Origin: Limnochorda sp. L945t
Lineage (GTDB): Bacteria; Bacillota; Limnochordia; Limnochordales; Geochordaceae
Assembly (NCBI RefSeq): GCF_035593305.1
Contig: NZ_CP141615.1
Span: 3,007,722 to 3,071,721 of the forward strand
Direction of reading: 5' to 3'
DNA length: 64,000 bases
Below the pieces are notes generated by a model that worked only from the letters and a program-made list of their open reading frames with translations, ran no database searches and was not told where the DNA came from. Made by a program: the position numbers and the translations under genes. How positions within the stretch are numbered: position 1 is the first letter of the stretch; each line of letters begins with the position of its first letter. Of the stretch, positions 46,852 through 63,225 are shown piece by piece.

Positions 46852-47748
46852 TCACCGCGTCCCTCGCGGCCTCGGCCGGCCCCCGGGGCCCGCTCGTGTA
46901 CGGATCCAGAGCACGGTCCCGTTGAGCGCCAGGGTGACCAGCAGCAGTACCGCCATGGTCGCGTAAAGGTTCGGCTTGGTCATCTCCACGTCGGGCGACT
47001 GGGTGGCCAGCACGAAGACGTGATAGCCCAGTTCCATGAACTGGTCGGACGGCTCGAGCGGCAGGGAGGGGGCGAAGTACGCGACCCCGGTGAACATGAT
47101 GGGAGCCACCTCTCCGACGGCCCGGCTCACGGCGACGAGAGCCCCGGTCAGCACGCCCCTGCCGACCAGGGGCAGCACCCCGAATCGCACGGCATCCCAG
47201 GGGCCGAGCCCAAGGGCTCGCCCGGCCCGCCGGTGGTTGGGCGGCACTTCCCCGAGCGCCCGCTCCGTCGAGCTGACCACCACGGGCAACGTGTACGCTG
47301 CCATGGTGAGACCCGCCCACACCACCGCGGGCTGGCCGTAGACCAGGTTGCTTCCGGAGAACCACCGATCCAGCTGCTGGCCGACCCCGAGCACGAAGAA
47401 ACCCAGGCCGAACAAGCCGTACACGATGGCGGGCAGCCCCGCCAGGCGGCTCACGCTCCACCGCATGGCCCGCCCCGTGAGGGAGCGCTCGTCCGAGAAG
47501 GCCGCCAGGTAGATGCCGCCCAGCACCCCCACCGGCACGGTGATCAACCCCACCATCGCCACCAGCGCGAGCGTCCCTACGATGGCCGGCAGGATGCCCC
47601 CGGAGGCGAGTCCCTCTTCCGGCGGGAGGGTGAAGAAGTCCCGGCTGAAGCGAGGCACTCCCAGCGCCAGCACGGCGACGACGAGCGCAACGAAGCTAGC
47701 GACGACGAGGGCGCTGGCTGCGGCCGAAAGCCACCGCAACAGCCTCAT
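46852..47748 (-). CDS. pstA: phosphate ABC transporter permease PstA
   Basis: One of two membrane subunits of the high-affinity phosphate importer, 298 residues, six hydrophobic segments. Family features: ASGGILPAIVGTLALVAMV, VPVGVLGGIYLAAFSDE, SRLAGLPAIVYGLFGLGFF, and the coupling loop RALGLGPWDAVRFGVLPLVGRGVLTG, followed by SRAVGEVAPIMFTG. It overlaps the 3' end of pstC by 53 bases. The C-terminus is Arg/Gly/Pro-rich and unusual but harmless looking. Confidence 0.95.
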   Translation of the reverse strand: MRLLRWLSAAASALVVASFVALVVAVLALGVPRFSRDFFTLPPEEGLASGGILPAIVGTLALVAMVGLITVPVGVLGGIYLAAFSDERSLTGRAMRWSVSRLAGLPAIVYGLFGLGFFVLGVGQQLDRWFSGSNLVYGQPAVVWAGLTMAAYTLPVVVSSTERALGEVPPNHRRAGRALGLGPWDAVRFGVLPLVGRGVLTGALVAVSRAVGEVAPIMFTGVAYFAPSLPLEPSDQFMELGYHVFVLATQSPDVEMTKPNLYATMAVLLLVTLALNGTVLWIRTRAGPGGRPRPRGTR

Positions 47749-48688
47749 GGCCGTTCTCCGGGTCGCCGGGCACGAGCAGGGGCGGCGCCGGGCGAGTCAG
47801 CCGGGCCAGCAGTTCGTGCGCCGCCAGCGAGACCGCCAGCAGGATGGCCCCCAGCATGAACAGCACGCTGTAGTGGGTGCTGCCGTACACCACGGATCCC
47901 ATCTCGGCGGCGATGGTGCCGGCCAGGGTCCGCGCCGAGTCGAGCGGGGAGAGGGAAAGCACTGCGGCGTTGCCGGTCAGCATGACCGGGATCATGGTCT
48001 CGCCGAAGGCCCGGGCGAACGCCGCCACCCCGGCTCCTGCGAACCACCGCCACCCCGCCGGCAAGGCCAGGTGAACCCACGCTCCCCCCTCGGGGATACC
48101 GAGGGCCCGGGCGGCCCGGTAGACTCCGGATGGCAGGGCGGACAGGCCGTCCGCCGCCATCCGGAAGACCAGGGGCACGGACCATAGCCCCAGCACGACC
48201 GCCGCGAGGCAAGCGTTGAGCTCGGAGGGGGCCCCCGTCACCTGCTGCAGGGGCGTCGCCAGGAAGAGCAACCCTGCCGCACCCAGCACCACCGTCGGCA
48301 CCCCGTCCAACAACTCCATCACGGCTGCCACCGCCGTCCTCACCGCCGGGTGGGCGTGGCGGGTAACGTGGAAGGCCGCGAGCGAGCCGAGCGGCCACGC
48401 CACCGCCAGCGACAGCAGGCTCACCCGGGTGGTCCCCACCAGCAGGGGCACGATGGAGTACTTGGGCCGCAGGGCCACGGGCTGCCACACGTACGGACGA
48501 GAAGGCGCAGGGCCGGGCTCGTCGCCCCACCAGAGATGGGCAGGGTGGAGCGCTTCCCCCGGCAGCGGTTGGGTCCAGACCAGGAGCGCCTCGCGCAGGA
48601 TGAAGTAGAGGATCGCCAGCACGCCCAGCACGCTCACCCAGGCGGCCGCACCCGAGAGCCCGATCCAGCCCCGCTCCGCGCGACGCAT
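47696..48688 (-). CDS. pstC: phosphate ABC transporter permease PstC
   Basis: Partner of PstA, 330 residues. SIVPLLVGTTRVSLLSLAVA, the ELLDGVPTVVLG segment and the coupling loop ARALGIPEGGAWVHLALPAG then FARAFGETMIPVMLTGNAA are typical. A Pro-rich periplasmic insert (about 40-70, LWWGDEPGPAPSRP) separates the first helix from the core, longer than in most PstC proteins. It sits 27 bases after pstS on the same strand. Together the genes read pstS-pstC-pstA. Confidence 0.95.
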   Translation of the reverse strand: MRRAERGWIGLSGAAAWVSVLGVLAILYFILREALLVWTQPLPGEALHPAHLWWGDEPGPAPSRPYVWQPVALRPKYSIVPLLVGTTRVSLLSLAVAWPLGSLAAFHVTRHAHPAVRTAVAAVMELLDGVPTVVLGAAGLLFLATPLQQVTGAPSELNACLAAVVLGLWSVPLVFRMAADGLSALPSGVYRAARALGIPEGGAWVHLALPAGWRWFAGAGVAAFARAFGETMIPVMLTGNAAVLSLSPLDSARTLAGTIAAEMGSVVYGSTHYSVLFMLGAILLAVSLAAHELLARLTRPAPPLLVPGDPENGHEAVAVAFGRSQRPRRR

Positions 48689-48715: not shown

Positions 48716-49561
48716 TCAGCGCAGCGGGATGTAGCCCACTTCGGCGACGACGGCCTGGCCCTCGTCGGAGAGCACCCAGTCGAGCAGCTGCCGGGCCAAA
48801 GGGCCGGGCTCTCCGAGGGTGTACCAGTAGAGCGGCCGGCTCAGCGGGTACGTGCCGTTTCGCACGGTCTCCAGGGAAGGCGCCACTGCAGGGGCCCCTT
48901 CATGCGCCCGGATCCGCAGAGCCCGCACCCCGTGCGCGTACGCGATGCCGCCGAAGCCGATGCCGTTGGGGGTCCGGGCCACTGCGTTGACCAGCGCCGC
49001 CGTACCCGGCATGGTCTGGGCCCTCGGGGTATAGTCCTCGTTTTGCATGACGTGTTCCCGGAAGAAGACGTAGGTGCCGGAGTTGTGCTCCCGGCTGTAT
49101 ACGATGATGGGTTGGTCCAGCCCCCCGACTTCCGACCATCGCCGGATGCGCCCGGTGAAGATGCCCCGCAGCTGGTCGACCGTCAGCGCCTCGACCGGAT
49201 TGGCCTCGTTGACGTAGACGGTGACGCCGTCCTTCGCCACCACGAACTCGTGCACCTCTTTGCCCCTGCGCTGCCGGGCCAGCGCCCGCTCCTGGGCGGT
49301 CATGGGGCGCGACGCCTCCGCGATGTCGGTCGTGCCGTTGATCAGGGCGGCGATCCCGGATCCCGAGCCGCCTCCCGTGACCTGGACGGCGATGTCCGGG
49401 TTTTTCCTGGCGAACTGCTCTGCCCACCGCTGTCCCAGGATGACCATGGTATCCGAACCCTTGATGGTGAGCGCCTGCCGGGCCATCGCGGGATGGCTTC
49501 CCCAGCCCTCCAGCGCCGCCAGCAGGAGCAGTGGCGCTCCCCACTTCCAGGCGCCTTTCAT
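48716..49561 (-). CDS. pstS: phosphate-binding protein PstS
   Basis: Periplasmic phosphate-binding protein, 281 residues. Signal peptide (1 to about 28, ending AMARQA) with no lipobox Cys. Phosphate-contact regions are recognisable: LTIKGSDTM near the start, TGGGSGSGIAAL, DIAEASRPMT, YSREHNSGTYVFFREHV, and GIGFGGIAYAHG. This form, with SGTYVFF, belongs to the shorter Bacillota-type PstS group. It is transcribed with pstC and pstA. The gene directly upstream on the same strand is the EAL-CBS-GGDEF gene, only 23 bases away. Confidence 0.94.
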   Translation of the reverse strand: MKGAWKWGAPLLLLAALEGWGSHPAMARQALTIKGSDTMVILGQRWAEQFARKNPDIAVQVTGGGSGSGIAALINGTTDIAEASRPMTAQERALARQRRGKEVHEFVVAKDGVTVYVNEANPVEALTVDQLRGIFTGRIRRWSEVGGLDQPIIVYSREHNSGTYVFFREHVMQNEDYTPRAQTMPGTAALVNAVARTPNGIGFGGIAYAHGVRALRIRAHEGAPAVAPSLETVRNGTYPLSRPLYWYTLGEPGPLARQLLDWVLSDEGQAVVAEVGYIPLR

Positions 49562-49584
49562 CGCACGGCCTCCTTCCGCTCGTC

Positions 49585-51357
49585 CTACATCACGATGGCG
49601 TTTCCCTCCTGGATCTTGGCCTTCCGTTTCAACTGCCCCACGTTGGAGACGAACTCCAGGTACGACCGTACGTGGCCGCGCGGATTGTGGAGGATGGCGA
49701 TCGAGAGGGTCATGATGCCGAAACGGGTACGGTTGCCTCTACGGTCCTCTCCTTCGATGTACCCGCGAGCCAGGTCTTCGGGAGAGTAGAGCAGGCGTAC
49801 GCGGCTGTCGAAGGCTTCCACCACGGCTCGGGCCACCTCGGGCCCGGAGTCGCCGGGCACCACCATGACGAAGTCGTCCCCTCCCACGTGCCCGACGAAG
49901 CTTTCTCCCGGAGGAAACCGGGCAGCCTGGGCCTGCAACACTTCGGCCAGAGCGCGGATGGCCTGGTCGCCGCGCTTGAAGTCGTAATGGTCGTTGAACG
50001 CTTTGAAATCGTCGATGTCGCAATAGAGCACCGAGAAGTCGGCTCCGTGCTCCAACCGTCGCGCCACCTCGCGTTCGATGACGCGGTTGCCCGGCAAGCC
50101 GGTCAGCGGGTTGGCGTCGCGGGCGGCCTCGATCTGCAGCTGGGTGATGCGCTGCAAGAGCCGCCGCACGGTCACGAGACCCTGATAACGCCCGTCGTCC
50201 GTCACGATGATGCTGTCGTACGCCGACGACTCCTGGCGCTGGGTGGCCCGGTACGCGACTTCGGAGAGAGGGGTCGAGCCGTCCACGACGAGGGGGACGG
50301 GATCGGCCGCGAGCCGCACGGGCCGCGCGGAGAAGATGGCCCGCCCGTACCGGCGGCCCAGGAGATAAAAGAGCCGGTCCCTCATGACAAGGCCTACCGG
50401 ATGCCCGTGTTCGACCACGGCCACGGCGCTGAGGCCCGGATCCTGCTCGAAGCGTTGAAGGACCGCGGTGACCTGGCAATCGGGTTCGACCGGGGGCACG
50501 CTCTCGGCGAGTTCGCCGACCGGGGGTTCGGCGTGCCCGGTGCCCAGAAAGATCCGCTGGGCCGCCCTCAGTTCCGCGAGGCTCTCCGGCGACACCGGCG
50601 GCGGCACCGGCTGCGGGCGGGCGAGCAGGAATCCCTGGCCCATGTCGACGCCGGCCCGCACCAGGAACCGGAGCTCTTCGAGCCGCTCGATGCCTTCCGC
50701 CACGACCTGGATCGAAGCGGAGTGAGCCGCCTCCACGATGCCCCGCACCAGGTGCTGGCGCATCGGGTCCTGGTCGACGTGGTCGATGAGGCTGCGGTCG
50801 ATCTTCACGAAATCGGGTTTGAGCGTCAGGAGGCTCTGGAGGGAGCTGTGCCCGGCCCCCATGTCGTCGATGCCGATGGCAAATCCCTGCCGGCGATAGT
50901 GGCGAATGGCTCCCTCGATGTGGCGGCCCTCGTCCAGGGAAGCCGCCTCGGTCAGCTCCAGCACCACCGCCTCCAGGGGCAAGCGGGCTGCATCCACCCA
51001 TTGGCGGGTGAGCCCCTGCCGGAAGCCGGGCTCGGAGAGGCTCAGCGGGTGGACGTTGAGGAAAAGCCGGGGTGACGGGCCGTCCGCGCTGCCTTCTGCG
51101 CGAGGCAGGGCTTTGCGCACCAGCTCGGCCCAGCGGTGAATCGCCAGGCGCCGGCTGGCCGCGTCGACCTCCCAAAGGCGGCCGCTCGCCCGCGCCCAGG
51201 CGAACAGGCTTGCGGCGCTCTCGATGGCGCTACCCTCGGGACCGCGGGTCAGGGCTTCGTAACCGGCGACGGTCCCGTCCCTGAGGCGCACGATCGGCTG
51301 GTAGAAGGTACGCAGGCTCGGGAGTTGGGCGCCGGGTGCGGTGGGGGCATCGCCCAT
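49585..51357 (-). CDS. EAL-CBS-GGDEF c-di-GMP signalling protein
   Basis: Cytosolic signalling protein of 590 residues. The N-terminal EAL phosphodiesterase domain (about 12-255) keeps the residues expected for c-di-GMP hydrolysis: EAL at E34, the Asn in FLNVHP, ELTEAAS, IDDMGAGHSS, the Lys in FVKID and the Glu in VVAEGIE. A pair of CBS motifs follows (about 285-410), which may bind adenine nucleotides. The C-terminal domain (about 415-580) starts ANPLTGLPGNR and has GGDDF (492-496) instead of GGDEF, with no RxxD inhibitory site, so cyclase activity is doubtful. It lies between a PstB-like ATPase and pstSCA on one strand, suggesting control by or of phosphate uptake. Confidence 0.93.
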   Translation of the reverse strand: MGDAPTAPGAQLPSLRTFYQPIVRLRDGTVAGYEALTRGPEGSAIESAASLFAWARASGRLWEVDAASRRLAIHRWAELVRKALPRAEGSADGPSPRLFLNVHPLSLSEPGFRQGLTRQWVDAARLPLEAVVLELTEAASLDEGRHIEGAIRHYRRQGFAIGIDDMGAGHSSLQSLLTLKPDFVKIDRSLIDHVDQDPMRQHLVRGIVEAAHSASIQVVAEGIERLEELRFLVRAGVDMGQGFLLARPQPVPPPVSPESLAELRAAQRIFLGTGHAEPPVGELAESVPPVEPDCQVTAVLQRFEQDPGLSAVAVVEHGHPVGLVMRDRLFYLLGRRYGRAIFSARPVRLAADPVPLVVDGSTPLSEVAYRATQRQESSAYDSIIVTDDGRYQGLVTVRRLLQRITQLQIEAARDANPLTGLPGNRVIEREVARRLEHGADFSVLYCDIDDFKAFNDHYDFKRGDQAIRALAEVLQAQAARFPPGESFVGHVGGDDFVMVVPGDSGPEVARAVVEAFDSRVRLLYSPEDLARGYIEGEDRRGNRTRFGIMTLSIAILHNPRGHVRSYLEFVSNVGQLKRKAKIQEGNAIVM

Positions 51358-51385
51358 GGAGTGGCTCGTGCTCCTTTCTGTGTGT

Positions 51386-52222
51386 TCATCCCTGGTGCAG
51401 CAAGCGCTCCGTACGGGGGTCCGAAGGATTCAGGAGGATGTCGGCGACAGGGCCGGACTCCACGAGCTCTCCGTCGAGGAGGACGGCGACCGTATCGCCC
51501 AGGCGGGCGGCTCGTTCGGGCGACTGGGTGGCCACGACGACCGGCCTCCCGGCGGCGATGCGGCGGAGCACCGCCTCCACGGCGAGCCCTGCGTGGGGGC
51601 CGAGGGTGGCGGCGGGTTCGTCCACCAGCAGGACGTGCGGGTCGCCCACCAGCGCCCGCGCCAGGGAAAGCTGGTAAGCCTGGGCCGGCGAAAGGTGCTC
51701 GACACGGCGGGAGAGGCCACCCGGCCACAGCTCCGCCAGACCCGCATCCTCGAGCGCCCTGCGCATGGCGGCCAGCTGGAGCGGCCGGGGCTGGCGGCGC
51801 AGTGACGGGGCCAGAGAGAGATTGCGCAGGACCGTGCCGGGGAAGAGGTAGGGCTCCTCCATCACGACGGGGGCCAGGTGGCGATACGAAGCGGCCGGGC
51901 CGCCGGCCGGCAGCACCCGGCGGTCGCGCACCCACACTTCGCCTCTGGCCGCGGTGCCTGCCTCGTCCTCCAGCAGCCCGTTGATGGCCCACAGGATCGT
52001 GGACTTCCCCGCGCCCGGCGGCCCGAGCAGCACGGTAACGCCGGTGGCCGGGACGTCGAGGCTGAGATCCCGCACCGCCAGGCGCCCCGCCCAGGAGATG
52101 GTCAGCTGCCGTATGCGAATGACGGCTTGCTCCGGCTGGCGCAACGGCGCATTCCCCGTATGCCATGGACTGGATCGATTGGTCTGCGTTTCCTGTGCAG
52201 CAGGGTAGCACCGGCGGGTCAC
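51386..52222 (-). CDS. PstB-like phosphate ABC ATPase with degenerate motifs
   Basis: ABC ATPase of up to 278 residues, whose C-terminus (GELVESGPVADILLNPSDPR) follows the PstB pattern, and which sits upstream of the phosphate genes. Walker A is GPPGAGKST and Walker B VLLVDEPAATL. However, the signature is LSPAQAYQ instead of LSGGQ, and the switch His is replaced by Gln (VVATQSPE where PstB has THN). These changes usually lower ATPase activity, so it may be slow, regulated or a non-transport paralogue. The GTG 52222 start adds about 35 atypical N-terminal residues; TTG near 52144 would give a more typical length. It precedes the EAL-CBS-GGDEF gene by 28 bases. Confidence 0.82.
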   Translation of the reverse strand: MTRRCYPAAQETQTNRSSPWHTGNAPLRQPEQAVIRIRQLTISWAGRLAVRDLSLDVPATGVTVLLGPPGAGKSTILWAINGLLEDEAGTAARGEVWVRDRRVLPAGGPAASYRHLAPVVMEEPYLFPGTVLRNLSLAPSLRRQPRPLQLAAMRRALEDAGLAELWPGGLSRRVEHLSPAQAYQLSLARALVGDPHVLLVDEPAATLGPHAGLAVEAVLRRIAAGRPVVVATQSPERAARLGDTVAVLLDGELVESGPVADILLNPSDPRTERLLHQG

Positions 52223-52230
52223 AAGTGTGC

Positions 52231-52254
52231 AACGGCCGGGTTCACCCGGCCGTT
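52231..52254 (-). terminator. hairpin after ybjQ
   Basis: Perfect 10-bp inverted repeat AACGGCCGGG/CCCGGCCGTT with a 4-base loop, 26 bases beyond the YbjQ-family gene and before the PstB-like gene on the same strand. No U tract follows. Confidence 0.55.
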
Positions 52255-52280
52255 ACATCGACAACGGTGGGGCCCGGGCG

Positions 52281-52625
52281 TCAGGCGCGGGGCGAGGAGG
52301 CGATCCGGACCGCCGTGCCCGAGGCGCTGACCATCAGCATGCTACCCCCGGACCCCACGACTTCGTAGTCCAGGTCTATGCCGACGACGGCGTTGCCGCC
52401 GAGCTCGCGGCAGCGCTCCGCCATCTCCGACAGGGCGATCTCCCGGGCTCTGGCCAACTCCTGCTCGTAGGCCGCACTGCGGCCTCCTACGATGTCGCGG
52501 ATCACGGCGAACATGTCTCGGAAGACGTTGGCTCCCAGGATGGCTTCCCCCGTCACGATTCCCAGGTACTCCTCGATGGGCCGTCCCTCGACGCCCGGCG
52601 TCGTGGTCATGATCACGCCGTACAT
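52281..52625 (-). CDS. YbjQ/UPF0145 family protein
   Basis: A 114-residue protein of the YbjQ (DUF74) family, which forms pentameric rings and is sometimes called heavy-metal-binding, though its role is not settled. Core segments: [46 protein letters not shown] and a final small-residue strand. The ATG at 52625 is supported by AAAGGAGG about nine bases upstream. It is a single gene between a hairpin and the divergent RNA methyltransferase gene. Confidence 0.9.
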
Positions 52626-61338: not shown

Positions 61339-61423
61339 CGGCGTCTGCCCGTGCCGGGTATCAAAACGTTGGTGGCGTCGCGTTGTGCAGGCCGTCCTGG
61401 GTTGCGGCGAGCGCCACCGGTCA

Positions 61424-61518
61424 AGGACCCGGGGAGCTGGGTGGAGCCCGGCTGAGAGGGCAGCCCGCAATGCTGCCGACCCGCTGCACCTGATCTGGGT
61501 AATGCCAGCGCAGGGAGA
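61424..61518 (+). promoter_or_regulatory. TPP (thiamine diphosphate) riboswitch
   Basis: Clear THI-box aptamer: GGGGAGC at 61431, GGCTGAGAG at 61450, then ACCTGATCTGGGTAATGCCA from 61488 and the closing AGCGCAGGGA ending at 61516. The order and sequence match the conserved thi-box core. The 3' edge (AGGGAGAAG, 61512-61520) also serves as the ribosome site of the GTG start at 61528, so binding of TPP would hide the ribosome site and block translation, without a separate expression platform. Confidence 0.95.
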
Positions 61519-61527
61519 AGCGATGTC

Positions 61528-63225
61528 GTGCAACAGCACCTGCAGGACCGCCACCCGGGCCGGGTGGCGGTTTCGTTGGACCACGGCCCGGCCGTACTCG
61601 CGCTCCTGGCATTGGTGGGCCTCTGGGAGGCCGCCGTCCGCCTCGGCGAGGTGAGCCCGTGGGTCTTGCCGGCGCCTTCCCGGGTGGCCCGGGCCCTCTG
61701 GGAGAGCCGCGTCCTCCTGCTGGCTCACGCCGCGCCCACCCTGGTCGAGGCGGCGGCCGGGACGGCCCTCGCGCTGTGGGCCGGCGCCCTTTTCGGCGCG
61801 GTGGTCCATGCGACTCCGCTGGCCCGCCGGGCGCTCTACCCCCTGCTGGTCGGCACCCAGAGCCTGCCGGTCATCGTGGTGGCGCCCTTGCTCACCATCT
61901 GGCTGGGGTACGGCATCCTGCCCAAGGTGGTGCTGGTCGCGTTCACCGGCTTTTTCCCGATTGCCGTGGCCGTGGCCGACGGCCTGCAATCGGCGGTTCC
62001 CGAGATGCTGCGCTTGGTGCGGTCGATGGGCGGAGGGGGGTGGCAGCTCTTCTGGAAAGTGCGGGTGCCCTCGGCGCTCCCGTCCTTCTTCACGGGGGTC
62101 AAGGTCTCCATCACCTACGCGCTCATCGCGGCCGTGGTCTCCGAGTGGATGGGCGCGAGCGAGGGGCTCGGGGTCTTCATGTCGCGGTCGGCGCGGGCCT
62201 TTCAGACCGACCGGCTCTTCGCGGCCGTGGTCGGCGTGAGCGCCTTGAGTGCCGCGCTCTTCCTGGCGGTGGAGGGGCTGGCCCGGTTCGCCATGCCGTG
62301 GCACTACGGCCGGGCGGCCCCCCGCCGGCGCCGTCCTGCTGCCACGGCCCTCGTCGCGGCTGCCGAGGGCGACGGCCCGGGCAACGGGACGGAGACGCCC
62401 CTCTCCGCCATGTCGCCCGGCGCACAGACCTCCCGCGCAACGCTCGTAGTCGAAGGCATCTCCAAGCGTTTTCGGATGCCCTCGGGTGACGAGGTCGGGG
62501 TGCTGGAGGGCGTCAGCCTGTCCGTGCGGCCGAACGAGCTGGTGGCGCTCATCGGCCCCAGCGGATGCGGCAAGAGCACCCTGCTGCACATCGTCGCCGG
62601 GGTCGAGGCGCCCGACGCAGGCCACATCCGTCTGTCGGGGTCGGATATCACGGGGCGTACGGGCCTGGTGCGCCTCATGCCCCAGCAGGACCTGCTCATG
62701 CCCTGGCGGACCGTGCTGGGCAACTGCCTGATGGGCCCCGAGGTACAACGTCGCAACCTTGCGGCAGCCCGAGCCCGAGCCCTGGCCATGCTACCCTTGT
62801 TTGGGCTGAGCGGCTTCGAGCACGTCTATCCGGCTTTGCTGTCCGGTGGCATGCGACAACGGGCCAGCCTGCTGCGGACCGTGCTCGCCGGGGAGGGGCC
62901 CCTCTTGCTGGACGAACCGTTCGGAGCGCTGGACGCGCTGACGCGCCGGCGCATGTGGGCGTGGCTGCTGCACGTGCGGGCCAGGCTCGGGGTCTCCGTT
63001 CTCCTGATCACCCACGACGTGGAAGAGGCCGTGGCCCTGGCCGACCGCGTGTACGTCCTGAGCCCGCGACCTGCACGGGTCATCGCGGAGCGGCGCGTCC
63101 GGGAGCGGCCCGGGGAGCCTCTCGAGGCGCGCCGCTCCCAGGAGCTGCGCCACGAACTGTTGGAGGCGCTGGGCGTGCCGCCGTCAACCGTGGCCGTTTG
63201 GGGAGCCGACGCTGTCCGGGGGTGA
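61528..63225 (+). CDS. fused permease-ATPase for a thiamine precursor (ThiX-ThiZ type)
   Basis: A 565-residue fusion. Residues about 20-265 form an ABC permease of the SsuC/TauC/ThiX group (WVLPAPSRVARALWES, VPEMLRLVRSMGGGGWQLFWKVRVPSALPSF). After a 50-residue Ala/Gly/Pro-rich linker, residues about 310-530 form an ATPase: GPSGCGKST, signature SGGMRQRASLLR, LLLDEPFGALDAL and LLITHDVEEA. The TPP riboswitch in front and thiL upstream point to uptake of a thiamine pyrimidine (HMP or formylaminopyrimidine), usually done by separate ThiX, ThiY and ThiZ. The binding protein ThiY is not adjacent. GTG 61528 is set by the AGGGAGAAG ribosome site. Confidence 0.9.
   Translation: MQQHLQDRHPGRVAVSLDHGPAVLALLALVGLWEAAVRLGEVSPWVLPAPSRVARALWESRVLLLAHAAPTLVEAAAGTALALWAGALFGAVVHATPLARRALYPLLVGTQSLPVIVVAPLLTIWLGYGILPKVVLVAFTGFFPIAVAVADGLQSAVPEMLRLVRSMGGGGWQLFWKVRVPSALPSFFTGVKVSITYALIAAVVSEWMGASEGLGVFMSRSARAFQTDRLFAAVVGVSALSAALFLAVEGLARFAMPWHYGRAAPRRRRPAATALVAAAEGDGPGNGTETPLSAMSPGAQTSRATLVVEGISKRFRMPSGDEVGVLEGVSLSVRPNELVALIGPSGCGKSTLLHIVAGVEAPDAGHIRLSGSDITGRTGLVRLMPQQDLLMPWRTVLGNCLMGPEVQRRNLAAARARALAMLPLFGLSGFEHVYPALLSGGMRQRASLLRTVLAGEGPLLLDEPFGALDALTRRRMWAWLLHVRARLGVSVLLITHDVEEAVALADRVYVLSPRPARVIAERRVRERPGEPLEARRSQELRHELLEALGVPPSTVAVWGADAVRG

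What the first reader, a model, noticed from the sequence alone, without database searches (positions are those of the whole stretch)
48716..52222. c-di-GMP protein inside a phosphate-uptake cluster
An EAL-CBS-GGDEF gene lies 23 bases before pstS and 28 bases after a PstB-like ATPase, all on one strand. The EAL residues look active, the CBS pair may sense adenine nucleotides, and GGDEF is altered to GGDDF. This suggests a phosphodiesterase tuned by nucleotide levels and expressed with phosphate import. motAB, a target of c-di-GMP control in other bacteria, is in the same window. No phoU or phoBR gene is seen.
Basis: partly seen in the sequence, partly recalled or inferred. Interest (0 to 1): 0.65.

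Follow-up and report, generated by a model that had tools for sequence, protein, structure and literature searches.

The report
Phosphate-linked c-di-GMP enzyme in pst operon
A gene for an enzyme that probably breaks down the bacterial signal molecule c-di-GMP sits inside a phosphate-uptake operon; the same pairing recurs in many distant Bacillota, which suggests that phosphate shortage is wired to the swim-or-settle decision in this phylum, as it is through a related enzyme (RapA) in Pseudomonas.

Summary
A minus-strand cluster holds a PstB-like ATPase, an EAL-CBS-GGDEF protein (ECG), PstS, PstC and PstA, with gaps of 28, 23, 27 and -53 bases. All EAL catalytic residues are kept. GGDDF is not decay but a near-invariant family signature. 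Published work places RapA, the phosphate-starvation phosphodiesterase of Pseudomonas fluorescens, in this family. The linkage is not shared with the order, but recurs across Bacillota: 15 of 39 ECG genes lie within 8 kb of a full-scoring pstS, against 1 of 89 other EAL genes in the same genomes; some sit in complete phoB-phoR-ECG-pstSCAB-phoU clusters. Likeliest function: a RapA-type c-di-GMP phosphodiesterase co-expressed with a second Pst system. Adenine-nucleotide sensing is not supported (the CBS ribose Asp is missing). phoU, a PhoB/PhoR-like pair and a canonical pst set lie elsewhere in the genome; motAB is 33 kb away. Unexpectedly, this operon's PstB has lost its Q-loop Gln, LSGGQ glycines, D-loop Asp and H-loop His, so the 'transporter' may act as a phosphate sensor. 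I found no report of the Bacillota linkage in the papers searched. No expression or enzyme data exist.

The parts
49585..51357 (-). ECG protein, 590 aa, EAL-CBS-CBS-GGDEF, RapA/PA3258 type
   Evidence: Pfam EAL, CBS and GGDEF; full-length relatives across Bacillota; AlphaFold pLDDT 85.6; dN/dS about 0.18 against Bu05
50614..51318 (-). EAL domain (residues 14-248); E34, N101, E137, D164, D165, K185, E221 and Q241 all present
   Evidence: invariant in 41-50 homologues
50119..50472 (-). CBS pair (about residues 296-413); second repeat by Pfam, first by the model; no S/T-x-x-D ribose Asp
49594..50109 (-). GGDEF domain (about residues 417-588); D447, N455 and D464 kept
49870..49884 (-). GGDDF motif (residues 492-496), family signature GH[IV]GGDDF
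   Evidence: 53 of 57 GGDDF, 3 GGDDL, 1 GGDDW among rows that reach this motif and align
51386..52222 (-). PstB-like ATPase; Walker A and B kept; Q-loop Q to E, LSGGQ to LSPAQ, D-loop D to G, H-loop H to Q
   Evidence: same in Bu05
48716..49561 (-). PstS, phosphate-binding protein (TIGR02136); ligand-loop residues kept, strong purifying selection
47696..48688 (-). PstC-like permease
   Evidence: TIGR02138 130 bits (cut-off 196)
46852..47748 (-). PstA-like permease
   Evidence: TIGR00974 190.9 bits (cut-off 193.45)
52228..52257 (.). 14-nt inverted repeat (93%) between the ybjQ stop and the pstB start; probable upstream edge of the operon

Best explanation
ECG is a Bacillota member of the RapA/PA3258 family of EAL-CBS-GGDEF proteins and acts mainly as a c-di-GMP phosphodiesterase. 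It is made as part of a second, divergent Pst (phosphate) operon. When phosphate is scarce the operon is induced, PstS and the permease respond to phosphate, and ECG lowers c-di-GMP, pushing the cell away from attachment. The GGDDF domain most likely binds GTP and tunes the EAL domain, possibly with weak cyclase activity. The CBS pair is a dimerisation or ligand module of unknown specificity. Shown here: gene order, intact EAL site, family signature, recurrent pst/pho linkage. Inferred: activity, induction by low phosphate, and output.
For: All EAL catalytic residues are invariant in 41-50 homologues. Tight codirectional spacing, with no minus-strand terminator found. Same cluster in Bu05. Phylum-wide linkage: 15/39 ECG against 1/89 other EAL genes within 8 kb of pstS. 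Gene orders include phoB-phoR-orf-ECG-pstSCAB-phoU (L101; L089 and L093 similar), ECG-phoB-pstSCAB-phoU (L116, L121, L122) and pstB-ECG-pstS-pstC-pstA in G273 (L083), identical to the window. At least 8-12 changes of the linkage label on the ECG tree. RapA depletes c-di-GMP under phosphate starvation through PhoB (PMC3032545). [quoted passage not shown] The genome has 5 GGDEF proteins, 2 EAL and 1 PilZ.
Against: No expression, biochemical or phenotype data. Within Limnochordales the pairing occurs only in this species; G004 has a lone EAL relative by tig/clpP. 24 of 39 sampled ECG genes are not within 8 kb of a full-scoring pstS. No Pho box was sought with a dedicated model. PstB looks catalytically impaired, so the operon may not be an ordinary importer. 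RapA's own sequence was not compared here; its kinship rests on the cited papers.
Confidence: 0.62

Rival explanations
1. ECG is a true two-way enzyme: GGDDF makes c-di-GMP, EAL destroys it, and GTP or a CBS ligand sets the balance, so the operon can raise or lower c-di-GMP with nucleotide state.
For: GGDEF pocket residues D447, F451, K452, N455, D464 and GGDD are invariant. A GGDDF domain (GSU1937) is catalytically active (PMC8835794). PA3258 with its PDE abolished shows apparent DGC activity (PMC12900916).
Against: PA3258 did not raise c-di-GMP on overexpression in P. aeruginosa (cited in PMC8835794). Pfam covers only positions 5-94 of 161 of the GGDEF domain.
Confidence: 0.2
2. The Pst proteins of this operon work as a phosphate receptor rather than an importer: PstS with PstCA and a non-hydrolysing PstB passes phosphate status directly to ECG, in place of PhoU/PhoR.
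For: PstB lost the Q-loop Gln, signature glycines, D-loop Asp and H-loop His in both genomes of the species. PstS is far more constrained than B, C and A (Fisher p 0.001). No phoU in the operon. A full canonical pst set lies elsewhere. G273 shares the B-ECG-S-C-A order with a milder PstB change.
Against: No interaction evidence. Substitution counts are small. A PstB from the other locus could serve these permeases. The G273 PstB keeps the D-loop Asp and H-loop His.
Confidence: 0.1
3. The neighbourhood is accidental: a c-di-GMP gene landed in a pst operon with no functional tie.
For: Not conserved in the order; many ECG genes lie elsewhere.
Against: Strong enrichment against other EAL genes of the same genomes, and repeated, different arrangements inside pho clusters.
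Confidence: 0.08

Closest known systems
RapA of Pseudomonas fluorescens Pf0-1 (homologue PA3258 in P. aeruginosa)
   Same: Reported as homologous, EAL-CBS-GGDEF for PA3258; phosphodiesterase tied to phosphate starvation (PMC3032545, PMC12900916, PMC9394441)
   Different: RapA is described with its own Pho box; the PA3258-like gene examined (L140) lies next to a carboxy-terminal-processing peptidase, not in a pst operon. Here ECG is physically inside pst, and no LapD/LapG output is known
Bordetella DdpB (BB2957)
   Same: CBS pair between EAL and GGDEF, with GGDDF (PMC12805831)
   Different: EAL motif changed to ESL; no pst link reported in the passages read
Cupriavidus metallidurans RMET_RS24295
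   Same: CBS between EAL and GGDEF (PMC6629876)
   Different: Reported in a cadmium study. That L139 is this gene was not verified; no pst genes found within 8 kb in L139
Canonical pstSCAB-phoU
   Same: PstS, PstC, PstA and PstB homologues
   Different: Divergent subunits, no phoU, PstB split from the rest by ECG and lacking catalytic motifs

Membership tests
RapA/PA3258-type EAL-CBS-GGDEF proteins | EAL, CBS pair and GGDEF in this order over the full length | tested here: met
   35.6% identity over 97% to a P. aeruginosa protein (L140)
RapA/PA3258-type EAL-CBS-GGDEF proteins | GH[IV]GGDDF signature and complete EAL catalytic set | tested here: met
RapA/PA3258-type EAL-CBS-GGDEF proteins | c-di-GMP phosphodiesterase activity | not testable with these tools
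   residues only
RapA/PA3258-type EAL-CBS-GGDEF proteins | Induction by phosphate starvation via PhoB (RapA) | not testable with these tools
   only genomic linkage to pst and pho genes; no Pho-box model used
PstSCAB phosphate importer | PstS of the phosphate-binding family | tested here: met
   TIGR02136 246.6 bits, cut-off 206.6
PstSCAB phosphate importer | PstA, PstB and PstC pass equivalog cut-offs | tested here: not met
   the second locus L031 passes for all four subunits
PstSCAB phosphate importer | PstB with Q-loop, LSGGQ, D-loop and H-loop | tested here: not met
Adenosyl-binding CBS pair | G-h-h-[ST]-x-x-D ribose-binding motif | tested here: not met
   Asp absent from both repeats here; in the family it is not among the eight commonest residues in CBS1 (47 of 50 rows accounted for) and is in 5 of 50 in CBS2

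The most novel reading that the evidence does not exclude
In this species a second Pst complex has lost ATP hydrolysis and become a phosphate receptor that directly switches a c-di-GMP phosphodiesterase, a transporter-turned-sensor that replaces PhoU/PhoR.
Probability: 0.1. Interest if true: 0.8.

Novelty: new variant of a known kind. Interest (0 to 1): 0.52.

Why it matters
A phosphate-starvation phosphodiesterase was established in Pseudomonas. Finding its family embedded in pst/pho clusters of distant Bacillota suggests that low phosphate lowering c-di-GMP is an old or repeatedly selected circuit, testable in cultured thermophiles and clostridia. The impaired PstB offers a test of whether a Pst complex can signal without transporting.

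Tried and rejected
GGDDF as private degeneration: rejected. A c-di-GMP riboswitch near the operon: no Rfam match in the window, nor in eight related loci. Linkage inherited within Limnochordales: rejected. motAB as a linked target: 33 kb away, dropped. A solved structure of the whole architecture: sequence hits are to EAL or GGDEF domains only, and the best fold matches are EAL domains. Sigma-70 promoter scan: one site, near chance. Class-wide search around G273 for more B-ECG-S-C-A loci: only 7 genomes held, none new.

Full report
What is there. The window lies in a single-contig 3.31 Mb Limnochordales genome. MAG Bu05 carries the same cluster, and the paper describing Carboxydochorda subterranea L945T gives 97.13% AAI to Bu05 (PMC11456536), so the window most likely comes from that species or a very near one; this is an inference. 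On the minus strand lie a PstB-like ATPase (52222-51386), ECG (51357-49585), PstS (49561-48716), PstC (48688-47696) and PstA (47748-46852), with gaps of 28, 23, 27 and -53 bases. A 14-nt inverted repeat separates the cluster from ybjQ upstream, and the terminator scan found none on the minus strand. An operon is the natural reading but was not measured.

The protein. Pfam finds EAL, one CBS repeat and GGDEF. An AlphaFold model from 41 sequences (mean pLDDT 85.6, pTM 0.54, so domain placement is unsure) shows both CBS repeats. The EAL residues E34, N101, E137, D164, D165, K185, E221 and Q241 are invariant in the family, which predicts phosphodiesterase activity. GGDDF occurs in 53 of 57 aligned family members that reach the motif, with three GGDDL and one GGDDW (three further rows end before it and one distant row, L034, does not align). 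The other GTP-pocket residues are also invariant. So the motif is a family signature. A GGDDF enzyme from Geobacter is active (PMC8835794), and PA3258 shows PDE behaviour, with apparent DGC activity once PDE is abolished (PMC12900916). The CBS ribose Asp is absent in this protein and in most relatives, which weakens the adenine-nucleotide idea; that this Asp marks adenosyl sites is from general knowledge of CBS domains.

Is the linkage conserved? Within Limnochordales, no: among 60 relatives none other than the own genome gave a full-length ECG match, and the nearest EAL relative (G004) stands by tig/clpP. Across Bacillota, yes, recurrently. A sample of 398 genomes gave about 50 full-length or nearly full-length ECG genes. 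I fetched 55 loci and mapped pst genes and gene order. G273 has exactly the window's order B-ECG-S-C-A, with PstS 65% identical in the tblastn match. L101 has a PhoB-type regulator, PnpS/PhoR-type kinase, a CBS-chemoreceptor protein, ECG, PstS, PstC, PstA, PstB and PhoU, all on one strand; L089 and L093 are similar. L116, L121 and L122 have ECG, PhoB, PstSCAB, PhoU. L090 has an alkaline-phosphatase-like gene near ECG, and L092 has a phosphonate-binding protein.

Control. In 38 genomes I compared 39 ECG genes with 89 other EAL genes for distance to pstS. Within 8 kb of a pstS of 200 bits or more: 15 of 39 (9 of 26 families) against 1 of 89, Fisher p about 2e-8. The genes are not independent, so p is indicative. 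On an ECG tree the linkage needs at least 8-12 changes, slightly fewer than shuffled labels (21 of 500 shuffles as low); it has come or gone many times rather than once. The window itself is not in the 39.

Known relatives. The literature calls RapA of P. [quoted passage not shown] RapA is induced by PhoB in low phosphate, depletes c-di-GMP and triggers biofilm detachment (PMC3032545). I did not compare RapA's sequence directly; a P. aeruginosa protein beside a carboxy-terminal-processing peptidase (L140), probably PA3258, aligns over 97% of ECG at 35.6%. Bordetella DdpB also has the CBS pair and GGDDF (PMC12805831). Ten paper searches gave no report of ECG genes inside pst clusters of Bacillota; only open-licence papers are held, so this is weak evidence of novelty.

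The rest of the genome. A canonical pst set whose four proteins all pass curated cut-offs lies at 1.80 Mb, and a PhoB/PhoR-like pair with PhoU at 2.12 Mb. The genome has 5 GGDEF proteins, 2 EAL and 1 PilZ. The window's Pst is therefore a second, divergent system.

An unexpected detail. The window's PstB keeps Walker A and B but has E for the Q-loop Gln, LSPAQ for LSGGQ, G for the D-loop Asp and Q for the H-loop His; Bu05 has the same. PstB in the other ECG-linked loci surveyed keeps the D-loop Asp and H-loop His, and nearly all keep an LSGGQ-type signature. Against Bu05, PstS has 1 nonsynonymous and 15 synonymous changes, whereas B, C and A together have 28 and 27 (Fisher p 0.001). ECG has 13 and 25. 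The counts are small. They allow the reading that phosphate binding and c-di-GMP turnover matter more here than transport, but a PstB from the other locus could serve the permease.

Verdict. Nucleotide sensing by CBS, the motAB link and the meaning given to GGDDF are not supported. Function remains inferred from sequence and context.

Noticed in passing
L101:10211-11467 (-), L089:6238-7458 (+): A soluble protein with CBS and a chemoreceptor signalling domain lies between the PhoR-like kinase and ECG in pho clusters: phosphate genes next to both chemotaxis and c-di-GMP parts.
   Followed up: partly
window 51386-52222: PstB-like ATPase with four catalytic motifs altered, same in Bu05.
   Followed up: partly
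window 61420-61533: TPP riboswitch (63.7 bits) just upstream of an ABC-permease-like gene.
   Followed up: no
window 52281-52625: ybjQ-like gene beside the operon; the Bu05 alignment breaks at 52321 and Bu05 holds about 2.6 kb of other DNA there.
   Followed up: no
L033:14592-16209: The NRAMP-type gene after pstA is split over two frames in MAG Bu05, intact in the window; may be an assembly error.
   Followed up: no
L138 (NZ_CP154629.1): A 2.63 Mb Acetoanaerobium record listed as a plasmid is probably a chromosome.
   Followed up: no
L108:9839-10636 (-): A second, short EAL gene in tandem with ECG near pstSCAB-phoU-phoB-phoR.
   Followed up: no
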